A stretch of 37,183 nt of DNA from a virus, in IMG/VR virus record IMGVR_UViG_3300009059_000030, positions 1 to 37,183 of that record; one strand, 5' to 3'. Below, piece by piece: positions 4,363 through 24,050 of this stretch. Each line of letters opens with the position of its first letter. The stretch's first letter is position 1. The position numbers and the translations under genes were made by a program. The notes below the pieces were generated by a model. The model was given only the letters and a program-made list of their open reading frames with translations. It made no database searches and had not been told where the DNA came from.

Positions 4363-4587
4363 ATGATTAATAAATATCAAGAGCTTGTAAAAAAATTGTT
4401 AGAAAATAATTCAGTGTCTAATGTTATGGGTACTGCGCAAACATCTGTATACAATTCAAATGATCCAGTAAGTAAAGATACATACGAAAAAGGATATAAT
4501 ATAAAACCAACTTTATTAGGTTCTAAAGTTATAAAAAGAAAATTTCCAGAACTATTAACTAAAAAAACAAAAAAAAATAAAAAATGA
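4363..4587 (+). CDS. Small basic protein with a T4 internal-protein-like leader
   Basis: A 74-residue protein of unrecognised family. The N-terminus MINKYQELVKKLLE is an amphipathic helix ending in L12-L13-E14 followed by Asn. That is the form of the T4 capsid-targeting sequence, cleaved by gp21 after [L/I]-x-E. The C-terminus is very basic (LTKKTKKNKK), as expected for a DNA-associated internal head protein. A late-type octamer lies 11 nt upstream, and the gene shares an ATGA overlap with the nuclease-like gene that follows. The reading frame is sound; a role as a packaged internal protein is inference. Confidence 0.7.
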   Translation: MINKYQELVKKLLENNSVSNVMGTAQTSVYNSNDPVSKDTYEKGYNIKPTLLGSKVIKRKFPELLTKKTKKNKK

Positions 4588-5024
4588 TAGATTCTGGACA
4601 TTGGATATTAAGCGAAGGGGTAGTAATAGACGAAACAACATTTGGTTTTTTATATGAAATAACAAATAATATAAACAACAAAAAATATATAGGAAAAAAA
4701 CAATGCATATCCAGAATTAAAAGGAAACCCTTAAAAGGTAAAACTAGAAACCGAATAGATTTTAAAGAATCCGATTGGAAAACATATACTAGTTCTTCAA
4801 ATGATTTAAACGAAGATATAAAAAACCTTGGAAAAGAAAATTTTACCTTTAAAATATTAAGAACATGTAATTCTAAATGGTCATTAGCTTATTTTGAAAT
4901 AAAAGAACAGATTGACAACGATGTTTTGTTGAGAAATGATTATTACAATGGCATAATTAATGTAAGAATTGGAAATGCACCAAAAATAGAGTTGGATATT
5001 TATAAAAATAAAGTAATTATATAG
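4584..5024 (+). CDS. GIY-YIG-like endonuclease domain protein
   Basis: A 146-residue protein. Residues 21-40 read GFLYEITNNINNKKYIGKKQ, where FLY and KYIG are the GIY and YIG halves of a GIY-YIG nuclease core. Further conserved-looking positions follow: W and Y in DWKTYTSSS, the GKENFTFKIL strand, a Glu in AYFEIKEQ (probable metal ligand) and a late Asn in IINVRIG. These elements occur in the order of UvrC and Seg-type nucleases. It has no obvious DNA-binding appendage and is the size of a minimal domain, so it could be a freestanding homing-type nuclease, a head-packaged nuclease or a host-DNA-degrading enzyme. Starts within the previous gene (ATGA). Confidence 0.68.
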   Translation: MIDSGHWILSEGVVIDETTFGFLYEITNNINNKKYIGKKQCISRIKRKPLKGKTRNRIDFKESDWKTYTSSSNDLNEDIKNLGKENFTFKILRTCNSKWSLAYFEIKEQIDNDVLLRNDYYNGIINVRIGNAPKIELDIYKNKVII

Positions 5025-8044: not shown

Positions 8045-8569
8045 ATGAAAAAATATAACAAATTCGAAAATTTAATAGAATCTGCGTTCACACATTTTTC
8101 TAATGGTGGATTTAGAGAAGGTTCAGCGGTTAAACTAAAAGGTGCATTTTTTAATTCTCCATATTTTCAAAGGCATTATAGTGGACATGCCGGATTTTCT
8201 GAGTGGTTAAAGTCTATGGTCGATCAAGACTATTATTTTTTCATAAAAAGAGTAGTTGGGGGTGGATCAGAACAAAACGTTAAAGATGCCAATACAAACG
8301 AAGGATCGGGTGATGTATTTTTGGTATTGAAATGCGACCCTAGATCGGTATATGCTCCAACCGAAATGTCGGAATTCACTGTCCCAGGGGATTTTGAGAT
8401 AATTGAGGTTTTGGACTTTGGTGTTAATTTACCACCAGTACAAAGCGTTAAAAATAAATACGAACAACCCATTGGCACTAAACCAGAGATTGTTACGGTG
8501 AATATTAACCTTGGTAATCAACCAGAGGATAATTCTCTACCAACAAAAAATATTGCAATTAAACAATAG
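8045..8569 (+). CDS. Probable head or virion protein with an L-x-E leader
   Basis: A 174-residue protein of unknown function. Its start, MKKYNKFENLIESAF, closely resembles T4 internal-protein leaders, with a candidate gp21 site L10-I11-E12 followed by Ser. The middle is beta-rich (SGDVFLVLKCDPRSVYAPTE, then FEIIEVLDFGVNLPP). The C-terminus is extended and polar. A near-consensus late octamer sits 8 nt before the ATG, pointing to late expression. Its 3' end overlaps the convergent clamp-loader gene by 11 nt. A virion role is inferred from leader and promoter, not from a recognised fold. Confidence 0.7.
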   Translation: MKKYNKFENLIESAFTHFSNGGFREGSAVKLKGAFFNSPYFQRHYSGHAGFSEWLKSMVDQDYYFFIKRVVGGGSEQNVKDANTNEGSGDVFLVLKCDPRSVYAPTEMSEFTVPGDFEIIEVLDFGVNLPPVQSVKNKYEQPIGTKPEIVTVNINLGNQPEDNSLPTKNIAIKQ

Positions 8570-9509
8570 TTTTCGATAGAGCTATAACACAACAGAAAAA
8601 ATTGATTTCGTGGTCTAATACTGATGTATCTCGGTATAAATGTTCCCCGATCTCTAGTAATAGTACTTTTTTAACGATTTCATCTATTTTCGATGAAAAT
8701 ATTATATTAAACATATCTCTCATCAAAGATTGATAATCTGATCCAAAATCGAGTTCGTGTGATATAATATATTTTCTTATATCTAAAACCGATTCTTTAA
8801 GAATTAGACTTTTTACGACATTTTGAGCATGTACTACAGTGTTATTGCATGCGGTGGATAGATTTAAAACACCATCAATAGAGAAACGTTGAAGATCATT
8901 GATACAACGTCTCAAATCCAAGTTTCTTTTTTGTAAGAAAATTTTTAATTGCTTTTTGGTATTATCGTCTACTGTGACATTTTCATTTTCCAAAATATAC
9001 AAGCATCTATTATAAGAATCTTCCAATGTCGGTTTCAAATTGAAAATTAAGCACCTAGACTCTAATGGTTCGATCACCTGATTATAATAATTGGCAGTTA
9101 AGATAAATCGAACATTATCCGAATACTCTTCCATCACATTTCTCAAAATACGTTGACCCTCTTTGGTTAACCCATCTGCCTCATCTAAAATAATAACTTT
9201 TATGTTACCATCGATAGACCGTGTTTGGGCAAATGTAGTTACTTTATTTCTAATGGTGTCTACGCCATTTTCGTCCGATGCATTAATGTAAAGGTATTGA
9301 CACTTTAATACATCATTTACAATTATTTTAGCCAGTGTTGTCTTTCCGGTGCCTGGAGTTCCCCATAAGAAAATATGTGGAGTTTTATCATCTAAAACAT
9401 CAAAAAACTTTTTATTGTCAGTATTTAGAATTATATCTGACATCTTCGAGGGTCTATATTTTTCGACCCATAGTGATTTATACTTTAGCATTCCTATATC
9501 ATAGGGCAT
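8559..9509 (-). CDS. 44: Clamp loader ATPase subunit gp44
   Basis: An AAA+ sliding-clamp loader subunit. Motifs in order are EKYRPSKMSD at the N-terminus, Walker A GTPGTGKTT, DEAD (ILDEADGLTKEG), sensor 1 ILTANYYN and the arginine-finger element LESRCLIF. A helical collar follows. It loads the gp45 clamp at primer ends together with gp62, whose candidate is at 28298-28672. I place the start at the ATG at 9509. A longer frame from TTG (9530) would overlap the upstream small gene, and a further ATG at 9491 (MLKYKSLWVEKY) is also possible. T4 gp44 is 319 residues, close to the 316 predicted here. Confidence 0.92.
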   Translation of the reverse strand: MPYDIGMLKYKSLWVEKYRPSKMSDIILNTDNKKFFDVLDDKTPHIFLWGTPGTGKTTLAKIIVNDVLKCQYLYINASDENGVDTIRNKVTTFAQTRSIDGNIKVIILDEADGLTKEGQRILRNVMEEYSDNVRFILTANYYNQVIEPLESRCLIFNLKPTLEDSYNRCLYILENENVTVDDNTKKQLKIFLQKRNLDLRRCINDLQRFSIDGVLNLSTACNNTVVHAQNVVKSLILKESVLDIRKYIISHELDFGSDYQSLMRDMFNIIFSSKIDEIVKKVLLLEIGEHLYRDTSVLDHEINFFCCVIALSKTIV

Positions 9510-9522
9510 GCTTTTTATAAAA

Positions 9523-9690
9523 TCAATCAATAATTAATTGCTTACCTTGAAAATTTCTAGAAACTACTTCTAGCATTTGTGGTTTGGTATTAAATTCATC
9601 AATTGTAGTATCCGACTCCAATTCGGTCAATTCATTATCATCGGAATTGTGGACATCGGTGCAATCATTTGTAATTATTTCAGTATTCAT
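9523..9690 (-). CDS. Small acidic protein upstream of gp44
   Basis: A 55-residue frame read directly on the minus strand, starting MNTEIITNDCTDVHN and ending FQGKQLIID. It is acidic in the first two thirds, with a short basic, hydrophobic end. I recognise no family. Support comes from a full ATG-to-TGA frame filling the gap before gp44 and from a late-type octamer (ACTAAATA) exactly 8 nt before the ATG, the same spacing as at several other genes here. It would be co-transcribed with gp44. Confidence 0.6.
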   Translation of the reverse strand: MNTEIITNDCTDVHNSDDNELTELESDTTIDEFNTKPQMLEVVSRNFQGKQLIID

Positions 9691-14305: not shown

Positions 14306-14767
14306 TCATTTTAAATGGTTTTCATTAAAAATTAAAAATAAGTATCCTTTTTTTTCTGCATATTTTCTAGCAGCATCCCATTTTGCGCAATTAATAGCAT
14401 AGTTATACTTTTCATAAAGTATGGTAGATTGTTTCTTTCTATTAGTAATAGTAGGAGGTTTTGTTTGTTTTTCTGGTTTGACTTCTATTAAAACTTTCCG
14501 AGTAGAACTATCTTTCATTTTTATTTCTGCTACCAAATCAACAAAATATCTATGCAAACGACCATCCTTTGGTGATTGGTATGGAACAACCACAGATTCA
14601 GATCCCCAGGTTATAACATTTTGGCTATTGTCTAAATATCTAAATGATAATAGTTCCAACGAACTTCTATATATTACTGGTAATGTTCCTTTATATTTAT
14701 TTGGATTTTTGGGATGGAATATCCCTTGTATGTAATTTTTATTTTTTTTACCTAATGTTTTCATCAA
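14306..14767 (-). CDS. 4: Head completion nuclease gp4
   Basis: A 153-residue protein matching T4 gp4 (150 residues). It has the opening FHPKNPNKYKG, then VIYRSSLELLSFRYLD, the conserved SPKDGRLHRYFVDLVAEI and VLIEVKPEKQTKPP. The Glu near residue 38, Asp77 and the E95-V-K97 triad are the pattern of a TnsA/PD-(D/E)XK nuclease fold. gp4 acts on filled heads before tail joining. It overlaps gp13 by a 4-nt ATGA junction, so the two completion factors are translationally coupled. In T4, gene 4 is far from 13 and 21, so this clustering is a rearrangement. Confidence 0.88.
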   Translation of the reverse strand: MMKTLGKKNKNYIQGIFHPKNPNKYKGTLPVIYRSSLELLSFRYLDNSQNVITWGSESVVVPYQSPKDGRLHRYFVDLVAEIKMKDSSTRKVLIEVKPEKQTKPPTITNRKKQSTILYEKYNYAINCAKWDAARKYAEKKGYLFLIFNENHLK

Positions 14768-15633
14768 CCAATAAAGAAACGAACGGGGTCAGTATCTACG
14801 TAATTACTCATTAATTCTTTTTCCAATTCGTCTTTTTCTTTCAATCCTTGTGACATAACATCTTGGTAATTTACCGTTTGACCTCCAAATAAATTAGTAC
14901 CAGTATACTTTCCTCTAGTGTGACCCATTGCAATTTTTACAAGTGCGCTGGTGTATCTAAAGACCCAAAGTTGAGATACTAAATCTTTAATCGGTTTTTG
15001 CACCTTACATCCCAAAAGACCATAATAAATTACACTATTATTTGGTTCCGGTAATATTTTTAGAATTTGATTATCTGGATTGAATCTAATATAAGGTTTT
15101 AATGCCAATAATTTTTCTCTTGTATCTAACCAATCTTTTAAAACATGCCATGTCACAAGATCATAACCAACATTACCTAAAAGATGTCCGAAATATGCTT
15201 GTTGAGCTATTGTGTGTTCAATTGTAAACAAAGTATTAACACCACTGGAATTGCCTTGTTCTATAGAAAAAACATCTACTACTTTTCTATAATCGTCTAA
15301 ATCAAAATCATAACCTTCTGATGAATTTGGCATTGAGGGATCCGCTGGATTATTCATTTCTGGTGTTATACTAAAGAGTTTATCTATTCGAAGACCAACA
15401 CCTCTTTCATATAAATCAGATCTAAAAATTAAATATTCTTCTGTTACGCCGGAAAATTTAGTAAACCATTCTATTGCAATGTCTATCAATTCATACATCT
15501 GCTCACTACTAATTTCTATTTGTATCAAAGGTTCTCCCAATGTTCTTCTTATTCTTTGGGCTAAATGATCATAGCTTTTAATTTTAGAATTAAAAGTAGT
15601 ACTACCGTGGAATGAGTTTGGTAAAACGGACAT
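14764..15633 (-). CDS. 13: Neck protein, gp13-like
   Basis: A 289-residue protein resembling T4 gp13 (309 residues). The N-terminal region (RIRRTLGEPLIQIEISSEQM followed by LIDIAIEWFTKFSG) matches the gp13 pattern of LG.P..ieit.eQl...i..Al. An internal segment (HVLKDWLDTREKLLALKPYI) and a beta-rich C-terminal half follow. gp13 and gp14 seal the portal vertex and connect head to tail. No gp14 homolog is visible in the window. It is the first gene of the head cassette, with a late octamer (AGTAAATA) 6 nt before the ATG, and is coupled to gp4. Confidence 0.75.
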   Translation of the reverse strand: MSVLPNSFHGSTTFNSKIKSYDHLAQRIRRTLGEPLIQIEISSEQMYELIDIAIEWFTKFSGVTEEYLIFRSDLYERGVGLRIDKLFSITPEMNNPADPSMPNSSEGYDFDLDDYRKVVDVFSIEQGNSSGVNTLFTIEHTIAQQAYFGHLLGNVGYDLVTWHVLKDWLDTREKLLALKPYIRFNPDNQILKILPEPNNSVIYYGLLGCKVQKPIKDLVSQLWVFRYTSALVKIAMGHTRGKYTGTNLFGGQTVNYQDVMSQGLKEKDELEKELMSNYVDTDPVRFFIG

Positions 15634-19518: not shown

Positions 19519-20232
19519 TTATGGTAGATCCTTTATAACTGTTACGTTATTGTTTCCTTGGAATGATAAACCAGTCCCAGCTGTCCAAGTTCCATCCGTT
19601 GCTCTGGCATGAATGGTTAGAGGACTTGCTGTGCTTAGGAATGCAGCATATCCCTCATTAAATGCGGTTTGTTCCATATAACAATTCACAGTAGATAAAT
19701 TAGCATTATAACCAAATGCATAGAATCCGATACTTGTCACAGAATTTGGAATAGTAACTGAGGCGAGTTGGTTACTAGCGAATGCATAGTCTCCAATACT
19801 AGTCACAGAATTTCCAATAGTGACTGATGTAAGTTGGTTCATATAGAATACAAAGTTTCCAATACTAGTCACTGAATTTGGAATAATAACTGAAGTGAGT
19901 GGGTTATTATAGAATGCATTGTTTTCAATACTAGTCACAGAATTTGGAATAGTAACTGAAGTGAGTTGGTTACTCTGGAGTGCATTAGGTGCAATATAAG
20001 AAGCAGAGGAACCAATGTCTACATAACCTGCAATGCCTTGATTTGCTTTCCAACCACTTGGAACATTTCCATTTACAGTAAACAGAACATTTCCTGAACT
20101 GTCATAGATGGTTGTATCAACAGGACTAGTAAAGCCACCACCGCCACCACCACCTCCACCACCCACTGTTCCAGCAGATAGTTTACCAAATATTTTTATG
20201 TTTGCGTTGTTTGATTGTATTAAGTTTGCCAT
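19519..20232 (-). CDS. Fiber protein with BspA-type leucine-rich repeats
   Basis: A 237-residue protein. Residues 1-20 ([15 protein letters not shown]) look like a virion attachment segment, followed by an 11-Gly linker (residues 23-33). A beta segment ([15 protein letters not shown]) precedes four 22-residue leucine-rich repeats of the form [22 protein letters not shown] (residues 90-177). A C-terminal domain ([15 protein letters not shown]) ends the protein. BspA-type repeats mediate surface binding in bacteria and protists, so this is a candidate receptor-binding fiber tip. Repeats vary at the exposed xx and Nx positions while the core is nearly constant, as expected for a binding surface that changes. 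An octamer (ACTAAATA) lies 15 nt before the ATG. Confidence 0.78.
19702..19965 (-). repeat. Four 66-nt tandem repeats encoding leucine-rich repeats
   Basis: Four units of 66 nt share strings such as CACAGAATTTGGAATAGTAA on the plus strand and differ at scattered positions. They encode the 22-residue repeats at residues 90-177. Confidence 0.85.
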
Positions 20233-20322: not shown

Positions 20323-21765
20323 TTAGAACGATCCTCCATCAATTAGGAAATCGACGAGTTCGGATACACCAGAAGTACCAGTAATAGTACCAGTAACAAC
20401 AGTGTTTCCGCTGATGTTTACATTAGCCGCCAATAAATCAATATCGTTAGTTGAACCGTTTGAATCAATAACAATATTCTGCCCAGGTCCGAGGGGGAGG
20501 CCGGTTGTGGTAATTGTATAATTACCAACAAGATTAGAAGCTGTAATACCATCTAAACCGTAGGTTGTATCCGAAGTTTGTGCATCATTAACAACCTTTA
20601 CACTCGAACCTTCTATTTCTACGTGTGTACCAGTAGTGTTAAGTACAAAGTCAGTCGATTGAACTTGTAATTTATCAACAACTGTGGCGTCAGCATTAAA
20701 TGTAGCTGAACCATCAACAGTTAATGCACCAGCAGCAGAAACGCTAGAAGCGAATGTTGCAGCATTAGTTACATATAATGTTGATCCTAATGTAGTAGCA
20801 CCATCAGCATCAAGCGTACCAGTGAAATCACCGTTTACAGCAAAGATGTTTTGTGATGCAGAGATATTACCAAAGATTGTTAATGCCTCATTTGGAGTTT
20901 CGGTATTAATACCGACCTTACCATCTTCAACATACAATGTTGTATTGGCTCCACCACCATCAACTGACATTCCACCAGCAGCATAAATTGTGCCAGTAGC
21001 AGAAATATTACCAACAACTGTTAATTTTTCATTAGGAGTAGCAGTACCGACACCAACATTACCACCATCTACAATGATAAAAGCGGTTGCGCCATCATCT
21101 TGAAATTCCGCAATGTTAGTTGCACCAGTTTGGTTAACAACTAAAGCAGTTGTAGAACCAGCATTTATAACGCTAAAGGAACTAGTAACCGAGGTTGTTG
21201 TTTCAAGTGTTGATATATCACCAAGAACTGTGAAATCACCAGTAACAGTCAAGTTACCACCAATCTCAACGTTTCCGGATGTATTGATAGTATCAGAACT
21301 AATACCAGTAGAAACAGTTAATCCACCGTTGAGGACAACTGCATCTGATTCAATTTTTTCAACAAAGTATGTATCAACGTGTGATGATAAAGCAGTAGTT
21401 GCTGATCCACCGCTTGCTCCAAGGTCATCAACATATTTTTTAGTTGCTGCGTCTTGGTCGCTTATTGGGTTAAGAACATTTGTTATTAAATTTGAACCAA
21501 GATCAATTACTGAATTTGGTGAAAATGTAACAGCAGATAATGTTGTCAATCCGAGTAATGTTTTATCACCCGAAATTGCTTGTGATAACGTTCTACTTAC
21601 GAATGCTCCATCGCCACCAATTTCTAGTGACCCTGTAGCAGAACCATAATATAGAGTGTTGTTTTTTTCGCTAAAAGCCAACTCACCACCAGATAATACT
21701 GGTAAGGAATCAAGTCCGCTAGAAGCTAACCGACGTTTAATTAATATTGTGTTTATTGTAGACAT
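20323..21765 (-). CDS. Long tail-fiber / structural protein
   Basis: A 480-residue Gly/Thr/Ala/Val-rich repetitive protein. The N-terminal segment (VLSGGELAFSEKNNTLYYGS, residues 23-42) matches the attachment region of the fiber gene at 16752. A classic fiber shaft element NPISDQDAATKKYVDDLGA follows near residue 100. The rest consists of beta-helical style repeats such as GNVGVGTATPNEKLTVVGNI and DGKVGINTETPNEALTIFGN, ending in SGVSELVDFLIDGGSF. Codon use is G/C-shifted like gp23, suggesting high expression. Its promoter octamer lies unusually far upstream (37 nt), and a strong terminator follows. Confidence 0.8.
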   Translation of the reverse strand: MSTINTILIKRRLASSGLDSLPVLSGGELAFSEKNNTLYYGSATGSLEIGGDGAFVSRTLSQAISGDKTLLGLTTLSAVTFSPNSVIDLGSNLITNVLNPISDQDAATKKYVDDLGASGGSATTALSSHVDTYFVEKIESDAVVLNGGLTVSTGISSDTINTSGNVEIGGNLTVTGDFTVLGDISTLETTTSVTSSFSVINAGSTTALVVNQTGATNIAEFQDDGATAFIIVDGGNVGVGTATPNEKLTVVGNISATGTIYAAGGMSVDGGGANTTLYVEDGKVGINTETPNEALTIFGNISASQNIFAVNGDFTGTLDADGATTLGSTLYVTNAATFASSVSAAGALTVDGSATFNADATVVDKLQVQSTDFVLNTTGTHVEIEGSSVKVVNDAQTSDTTYGLDGITASNLVGNYTITTTGLPLGPGQNIVIDSNGSTNDIDLLAANVNISGNTVVTGTITGTSGVSELVDFLIDGGSF

Positions 21766-21842: not shown

Positions 21843-22175
21843 TCAAAAATATCCCGGATCAATAACACCATTATTGATAAAATCACTAGCACCTTGCCAA
21901 TTTGCTGATAAATTCTGTTGCAAGAAATTAACCTCATCACAAGTCTCTTCCCAACAAGCGGAAAGTTCTTGTAATGTGTTTAATTCGGTTATTTCTGGTG
22001 CATTAAACCATGCTGCTGAATTAGCAATAACATTAGTGGTAACTGAATTAAATAGTTGATAACTAGAACTTAATGTTTGTAATATATTGGCTAATGGTTT
22101 TAATCCCACCCCATCTGCATCTATATATACGGTAATATTATCTGGAGTTTGCATGTTTACTGTTACTGTGTTCAT
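21843..22175 (-). CDS. Small fiber-related protein
   Basis: A 110-residue protein of unknown family, starting 3 nt after the portal stop and so probably co-transcribed with it. It begins with a strand pair (VTVNMQTPDNITVYIDADGV), then a helical region containing VIANSAAWF and LSANWQGAS. These NSAxW/SANW units recall the SNSANW repeats in the fiber gene at 16752, suggesting a structural relationship. Two Cys residues lie in ACWEETCDE. It is likely a fiber or connector component. Confidence 0.6.
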   Translation of the reverse strand: MNTVTVNMQTPDNITVYIDADGVGLKPLANILQTLSSSYQLFNSVTTNVIANSAAWFNAPEITELNTLQELSACWEETCDEVNFLQQNLSANWQGASDFINNGVIDPGYF

Positions 22176-22178
22176 ATA

Positions 22179-23522
22179 TTATACCGGTTGTTCTCCTGTT
22201 TGAATTTCACCCTCTACTGCTCCAACTTCTGGCACCGCATCTGCACCAGCAACTGGAACCTCACCACCAACTGGTGCAGTTTCTCCACCGCCTCCACCAA
22301 ACTCTGGAATAGCCGAACCACCAGATGATGTCATTCCACCACCATCCCCTCCTCCTAAGTTACCAGCCTGTGCAACATTCTCAGCAGCTTCCAGATGTTC
22401 TCTCCAATTTGGACCAGTCTGAGCTATTTGATCCAATTCCCACTTCAATGCCGCATCTTTTCTCAACCATTCCATATTTTCGCTTATTTTTGAATCATTT
22501 AAGTCCAAATAATGACGCATTGCAAAAGTTTTTGAAATTTGATCTTGTGCTGCCATACTTTCAAAATTCTTAATCTTTAATTCCAAATTTTGATTTTGTC
22601 TCAACGCAAAATAACTACTAGGAGGAACAAATTCTAAATCGAAATAAGATTCATGTAATTTATATTCATCCCACCAACCTCTTATTTTTAAATGTGTTAT
22701 GAAAGCATCTTTGAGACCTTTTGCGAATTGATATTGTATTCTCAATATCATTTTAGCAAATCTTAATTCTTCTCTCAGAATTTCCGACCCATCTTTAAAC
22801 GAATCTTCGGGGTTTAATCGTGTTGCTGGCACACCCAATGCATTGTAAAGTTTTGTTACAAAATACATTAAATCCTTTAATTCACCTAGATTTTGTCCAC
22901 CGTTTAACACTTGAACATCTGAACCAGTTTCTCCTGTTCTTTTAGCAAACCAAAATGAATCCAACATAGATTGTGGATCATATATATTACCAGCACTTCC
23001 ACCACCAGCTTGCGGATCATATGTCTTTTTAGACCAATACGACTGCATCAATTGTTTCAAATATGCCTCTGCTTTTGCTGGAGGCATATTACCCACATCG
23101 ATAACAAACTTTAATCTTTCTGGTGCTCTAACCAAACGATAAATAACAATAGCATCTTCGATTAAAGACAATTGTTTATATGCCCTTCTACCTTTTTCGA
23201 TATGTGGTATTCGGATAGACATATCTTCATTCCAAATACCAGAATTTATATATGTTATTTGATTTCCTTCAAATGTTATTAGTTGATGCTGTAAAGAATT
23301 TGTTGCATTAGGATTCGGCATCGGCAAGTTTGGTTGTCCTTGCTGATTATTGGTCATGTTAATTGGTTTTTGGAAAATGAAATTTTGTATAACATTGTTT
23401 TGTATGTTATCATAAATGGGGTTAATCAATTCACCCGGAACATTTAATACCCCTATTATACCCAAATCTTTATTTCTTTCGTGTACGATATTCTCAAAGA
23501 AAATTTCACCTTCGGTTAACAA
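22179..23522 (-). CDS. 20: Portal protein gp20, C-terminal part (same frame, after in-frame TGA)
   Basis: The 447-residue continuation of the T4-family portal. Starting from the TTG at 23522 it reads LTEGEIFFENIVHERNKDLG, IEDAIVIYRLVRAPERLKFV, VGNMPPAKAEAYLKQLM, the hallmark LNPEDSFKDGSEILREELRF and HYLDLNDSKISENMEWL. It ends in a Gly/Pro/Glu-rich tail of about 60 residues. This is the wing, stem and crown of the dodecameric portal through which DNA is packaged. The frame is identical to that of the N-terminal part at 23535-24050, with four sense codons (YCRQ) between the TGA and this TTG. TTG re-initiation without a ribosome site is unlikely to make a useful protein, so readthrough, a sequencing error or true inactivation must be considered. 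Confidence 0.85.
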   Translation of the reverse strand: MLTEGEIFFENIVHERNKDLGIIGVLNVPGELINPIYDNIQNNVIQNFIFQKPINMTNNQQGQPNLPMPNPNATNSLQHQLITFEGNQITYINSGIWNEDMSIRIPHIEKGRRAYKQLSLIEDAIVIYRLVRAPERLKFVIDVGNMPPAKAEAYLKQLMQSYWSKKTYDPQAGGGSAGNIYDPQSMLDSFWFAKRTGETGSDVQVLNGGQNLGELKDLMYFVTKLYNALGVPATRLNPEDSFKDGSEILREELRFAKMILRIQYQFAKGLKDAFITHLKIRGWWDEYKLHESYFDLEFVPPSSYFALRQNQNLELKIKNFESMAAQDQISKTFAMRHYLDLNDSKISENMEWLRKDAALKWELDQIAQTGPNWREHLEAAENVAQAGNLGGGDGGGMTSSGGSAIPEFGGGGGETAPVGGEVPVAGADAVPEVGAVEGEIQTGEQPV

Positions 23523-23534
23523 TTGCCTACAATA

Positions 23535-24050
23535 TCACCAACCTTTATGTTCAATATCAAAACTTTGAATGAATTTATAAAATTCTTTTTCAATTTCTCT
23601 TTTTTCTTCACTATCAATTTTATTGAATCCCGAAAAGGCAATATTTACAACTTTTCCATTTTCATCTTTATTTATAAACTCATCGCATATTGCATCAATA
23701 CAATCAGCAACCTCAGAAAATGCTGCCATTCTTCTATATTCTGACAATCTTCTTATTTTATCGGTATCTATTTGAGCATAGATAAAATTATGATAACCCT
23801 TATCGGTTGACATCAAATTTGGATTATAGTAATCCGAATTGTTTTGATTCATGAACGGTCCGGTAATAACCGATTGTTGCATGACTCTCAATTCGCGTTT
23901 TTTAGATAGTCTATCGAATAATTCGTATTTTGGATTAGTATCACCAACATCTAATGCCTGATCTACATATGGCAATTTAGACAAAATAGAAGATATAAAA
24001 CTTCTCCCATTATCTGATTGTCTATTTGGTTGTGGTAAAATATCAGGCAT
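23535..24050 (-). CDS. 20: Portal protein gp20, N-terminal part ending at an in-frame TGA
   Basis: A 171-residue frame matching the N-terminal wing of T4-like portals. Landmarks are RRLSEYRRMAAFSEVADCID, AICDEFINKDENGKVVNIAF and the helix KREIEKEFYKFIQSF. It stops at TGA (23535-23537) right after FDIEHKGW. Removing that stop gives a continuous gene from 24050 to 22179 of about 623 codons, close to other T4-like portals plus the C-terminal tail. Conserved sequence continues on both sides, so only this codon is disturbed. A late octamer (GATAAATA) lies 15 nt before the ATG. Confidence 0.85.
   Translation of the reverse strand: MPDILPQPNRQSDNGRSFISSILSKLPYVDQALDVGDTNPKYELFDRLSKKRELRVMQQSVITGPFMNQNNSDYYNPNLMSTDKGYHNFIYAQIDTDKIRRLSEYRRMAAFSEVADCIDAICDEFINKDENGKVVNIAFSGFNKIDSEEKREIEKEFYKFIQSFDIEHKGW

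What the first reader, a model, noticed from the sequence alone, without database searches (positions are those of the whole stretch)
22179..24050. Portal gene gp20 is whole except for one in-frame TGA
The minus-strand frame from 24050 stops at TGA (23535-23537) after HKGW and continues, in the same frame, as YCRQLLTEGEIFFE, with family-conserved portal sequence on both sides. Nothing else is damaged: the remaining frame is open for about 450 codons and the total length is right for a portal. A dead portal cannot give viable phage, so three explanations remain: a base error, a programmed readthrough or recoding event in a late gene, or a defective genome in the sampled population. A single substitution (for example AGA, CGA or GGA to TGA) would explain it. 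Stop recoding of late genes is established in some other phages, which makes this worth checking rather than dismissing.
Basis: partly seen in the sequence, partly recalled or inferred. Interest (0 to 1): 0.7.

Follow-up and report, generated by a model that had tools for sequence, protein, structure and literature searches.

The report
Private stop codon in phage portal gene
One assembled phage genome carries a single stop codon inside its otherwise intact portal gene, but every related sequence found, including one 99.9% identical, reads through that spot with an ordinary codon, so this is almost certainly a sequence error or a dead variant and not a new kind of recoding.

Summary
The T4-type portal gene (window 24050-22179, minus strand) has one in-frame TGA at 23537-23535 (codon 172 of 623), with portal homology on both sides. 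It is private to this contig. All 73 relatives first aligned have a sense codon there (63 Gly, 6 Ala, 4 Ser). A wider set of 65 distinct contexts again has no stop (46 Gly, 9 Glu, 6 Ala, 4 Ser). The nearest relative (IMGVR_UViG_3300024346_005137, 99.91% identical over 10.1 kb) has glycine. A degenerate DNA scan of IMG/VR found no second TGA version. TGA ends about ten other genes here, several at positions where relatives also stop. No suppressor tRNA was found in the window, and no other gene is interrupted. Readthrough or code change is therefore very unlikely. Seven of the nine differences from the nearest relative fall within 177 bases. The six besides the TGA are synonymous and all match a second strain, L004; five lie in a mosaic segment of at most 48 bases, 35 bases from the TGA. 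This suggests strain-mixed assembly or micro-recombination. Most likely the TGA is a consensus error; next most likely, a real but defective genome. Without raw reads these two cannot be separated.

The parts
22179..24050 (-). T4-type portal protein (gp20-like) reading frame, 623 codons plus terminal TAA, interrupted once
   Evidence: both halves match phrog_213; relatives have uninterrupted frames of 621-640 aa
23535..23537 (-). in-frame TGA, codon 172; sense codon (mostly Gly) in all relatives
23538..24050 (-). N-terminal 171 codons of the portal
22182..23534 (-). C-terminal 451 codons of the portal, under strong purifying selection
23466..23513 (-). maximal extent (48 bases) of a micro-mosaic segment that matches strain L004 instead of the otherwise 99.9% identical strain L002; five synonymous differences (23502, 23499, 23493, 23487, 23478)
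23361..23361 (-). sixth synonymous difference from L002, also matching L004

Best explanation
The TGA is a private single-base difference in this metagenomic contig and most likely a consensus (sequencing or assembly) error in a stretch where reads of at least two closely related phage strains were merged. The phage's real portal gene reads a small residue, glycine in its closest relatives, at codon 172 and is translated normally. Shown: the TGA is unique to this contig among all relatives found, the frame is under purifying selection on both sides, and the neighbouring sequence is a mosaic of two strains. Inferred: that the base arose in sequencing or assembly and not in the phage.
For: All 73 aligned relatives have a sense codon there, as do all 65 distinct contexts in the wider set. 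The 99.91%-identical contig L002/L076 has glycine. Between that contig and the window there are 9 differences in 10,099 bases; 7 fall within 177 bases in the portal, a clustering not reached in 200,000 random placements. Six of those 7 are third-position synonymous changes and the TGA is the only non-silent one. At the 499 sites in the aligned 4.6 kb where L002 and L004 differ, the window sides with L004 at exactly these six. The 33-base segment occurs elsewhere in IMG/VR only in L004. dN/dS against L003 and L004 is 0.022-0.035 before and 0.011-0.016 after the stop, so the downstream part is not decaying. Published benchmarks show that co-existing strains at 97% ANI or more hamper viral assembly (PMC5610896).
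Against: No reads, coverage or second assembly of the same sample could be examined, so a true nonsense mutation in the sampled molecules is not excluded. The TGA itself lies 35 bases outside the nearest L004-like site and is not an L004 allele, so the mosaic does not directly explain it; it only marks the region as unreliable or recombinant.
Confidence: 0.66

Rival explanations
1. A real nonsense mutation: the sampled population held defective phage genomes (replicated by complementation in co-infection, or freshly mutated, or produced around a micro-recombination event), and the contig reports one of them.
For: The rest of the gene is intact, and the nearby mosaic could be natural micro-recombination. 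A recent single substitution leaves no decay, as observed.
Against: A lethal allele in the only portal gene should stay rare, and a consensus normally reports the majority allele (general knowledge). The near-identical strain is intact.
Confidence: 0.3
2. Programmed readthrough or late-gene stop recoding of TGA, as in phages with suppressor tRNAs, so that the full-length portal is made only late.
For: The portal is a late structural gene and the frame continues for 451 codons. Such recoding is known in other phages (summarised in PMC10746230).
Against: No relative has a stop at the codon and a degenerate scan for the TGA version found none. No tRNA in the window; no suppressor tRNA among the 17 tRNAs of a 226-kb relative, and no tRNA at all in a 114-kb relative. 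Downstream RNA folding is ordinary, z = -0.97. It is the only such stop in the window.
Confidence: 0.02
3. Reassigned code in which TGA is glycine (NCBI code 25, as in Gracilibacteria/Absconditabacteria and some of their phages) or tryptophan (code 4).
For: The relatives' residue at the site is mostly glycine, as code 25 would give.
Against: Clearly code-25 phages are dense in in-frame TGAs (PMC10746230); here there is one. About ten other genes end at TGA, and several of these end at the same place in relatives with TAA or TAG (for example 14764-15633: 28 TAA, 4 TGA; 21843-22175: 8 TAA, 2 TAG, 2 TGA), so TGA terminates. The near-identical contig uses a standard glycine codon. Tryptophan is never seen at the position.
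Confidence: 0.01

Closest known systems
T4-type portal protein gp20 (phrog_213; PDB 3JA7, 6UZC)
   Same: Both halves match the family; the profile of intact relatives matches gp20 structures at E about 1e-38.
   Different: Interrupted once by TGA in this contig only; under 60% identical to any portal in the phage records searched.
Consensus errors and strain mosaics in metagenome-assembled viral genomes
   Same: Single private substitution with an intact frame around it, near a strain-switch segment; strain heterogeneity is a documented assembly problem (PMC5610896).
   Different: No difference seen, but the defining test (reads) could not be run.
Stop-recoding phages (crAss-like phages; code-25 phages of Gracilibacteria)
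   Same: In-frame stop in a late structural gene; the residue in relatives is glycine, as code 25 would give.
   Different: One stop instead of many, TGA used as terminator, no suppressor tRNA found, no conservation of the stop.

Membership tests
T4-type portal protein (gp20) | sequence match to the family over most of its length | tested here: met
   phrog_213 profile 21-132 and 135-499 of 528; gp20 structures matched
T4-type portal protein (gp20) | one uninterrupted reading frame | tested here: not met
   internal TGA at 23537-23535, whereas relatives have open frames of 621-640 aa with no stop inside
Stop-recoding phage | several in-frame stops of one kind in conserved genes | tested here: not met
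   only one in the window
Stop-recoding phage | recoded codon not used as terminator | tested here: not met
   TGA ends about ten other genes, several with the end conserved in relatives
Stop-recoding phage | suppressor tRNA encoded | tested here: inconclusive
   none in the window nor in 114-kb and 226-kb relatives, but the window is a fragment of a larger genome
Programmed readthrough | stop codon conserved in relatives | tested here: not met
   0 of 73 relatives, 0 of 65 distinct contexts; scan for other TGA versions empty
Programmed readthrough | stimulatory RNA structure downstream | tested here: not met
   106-nt fold z-score -0.97
Consensus or assembly error | reads carry a sense codon at the site | not testable with these tools
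   no reads available

The most novel reading that the evidence does not exclude
A single, newly arisen TGA in a late structural gene is tolerated by host-dependent readthrough in this one strain, giving enough full-length portal for viable virions.
Probability: 0.02. Interest if true: 0.45.

Novelty: not a real feature. Interest (0 to 1): 0.08.

Why it matters
As a biological feature it probably does not. It shows that a lone in-frame stop in a metagenomic phage contig should be checked against near-identical contigs before recoding is proposed. It also shows that clustered synonymous differences next to such a stop can flag a strain-mixed or recombinant consensus.

Tried and rejected
Code 25 (TGA = Gly) looked tempting because relatives have glycine; rejected on conserved TGA/TAA gene ends and a single occurrence. 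Suppressor tRNA search: none found. RNA structure after the TGA: ordinary. Selenocysteine: not supported, since the relatives' residue is Gly/Ala/Ser/Glu and never Cys. A second copy of the TGA allele in IMG/VR: none. A species-genome scan with a degenerate pattern over the site: no match. A paper search on oxidation-type sequencing artefacts returned nothing, so the fact that the change is the only C-to-A (plus strand) difference is not used as evidence. A split portal made by restart at TTG 23522 was considered and rejected: no relative has that arrangement.

Full report
Observation. The minus-strand frame from ATG 24050 to TAA 22179 encodes 623 codons with one internal stop, TGA at 23537-23535, codon 172. 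The two sides match adjacent parts of the T4-type portal family phrog_213 (profile 21-132 and 135-499). A stop-to-stop scan of all six frames found no other TGA separating two long open stretches.

Relatives. The C-terminal 451 residues found 74 distinct related loci in IMG/VR. At codon 172, 73 alignable relatives carry Gly (63), Ala (6) or Ser (4), and none a stop. After adding 80 loci found with the N-terminal half (many are the same contigs), 65 distinct sequence contexts give Gly 46, Glu 9, Ala 6, Ser 4 and no stop. The only internal-stop alignments ran past the real gene end in L174 and L175. Eleven relatives checked in their own records have open frames of 621-640 aa with no stop inside. 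Degenerate DNA scans found no other contig with TGA at the site, no second near-identical copy besides contig IMGVR_UViG_3300024346_005137, no match in species genomes and no near-identical phage record. In gp20 structures the equivalent stretch aligns only weakly (10.5 bits); the aligned residue there is Asp, so the position is not invariant across the wider family, but it is a sense codon throughout.

The nearest relative and the mosaic. Contig L002/L076 is 99.91% identical to the window over 10,099 bases, with 9 differences. Seven of the nine lie within 177 bases, 23361-23537; none of 200,000 random placements clustered so tightly. The TGA is one. The other six are third-position synonymous changes. 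In the aligned 4.6 kb, L002 and L004 differ at 499 sites; the window sides with L004 at exactly those six. Five of the six fall in one segment bounded by L002-like sites at 23514 and 23465, so at most 48 bases long. The 33-base core of that segment occurs in IMG/VR only in L004. A segment this short can come from an assembler switching between strains in a conserved region or from natural recombination; the data here do not decide. The TGA lies 35 bases outside the nearest L004-like site and is not an L004 allele.

Selection. Against L003 and L004 the dN/dS is 0.022 and 0.035 before the stop and 0.011 and 0.016 after it. The downstream half has not decayed, so the stop is either very recent or not real.

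Recoding tests. TGA ends about ten other genes in the window. Several of these end at the same place in relatives with other stops, for example 14764-15633 (28 TAA, 4 TGA) and 21843-22175 (8 TAA, 2 TAG, 2 TGA). TGA is therefore a terminator here, which argues against code 25 and code 4. That test mattered because glycine is both the relatives' usual residue and the code-25 meaning of TGA; clearly code-25 phages are dense in in-frame TGAs (PMC10746230). No tRNA was found in the window or in a 114-kb relative, and none of the 17 tRNAs of a 226-kb relative is a suppressor. The window is a fragment, so a suppressor elsewhere in this phage is not strictly excluded. RNA folding downstream is ordinary (z -0.97).

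Mechanism and verdict. The best-supported account is a private nonsense base in a metagenomic consensus built from, or recombined between, closely related strains. Consensus error is put at about 0.66, a real defective genome at 0.30, readthrough at 0.02 and code change at 0.01; these are judgements, not computed values. Viral assembly is known to suffer when strains at 97% ANI or more co-exist (PMC5610896). The first two accounts can be separated only by reads, which could not be examined.

Noticed in passing
23466-23513 and 23361: Micro-mosaic: five clustered plus one isolated synonymous differences from the 99.9% identical contig L002, all matching strain L004. A marker of strain mixing in the assembly or of micro-recombination.
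   Followed up: yes
8559-9530: The listed ORF (TTG start, 323 aa) is probably too long at its 5' end: two relatives have a stop upstream of the conserved ...KYRPSK start region. The WVEKYRP motif suggests a clamp-loader subunit (recognised from memory, not tested).
   Followed up: partly
20323-21765: 480-aa frame near the portal with no PHROGs match but 20 related loci.
   Followed up: no
19519-20232 and 4377-4601: Frames with no match in any locus fetched here.
   Followed up: no
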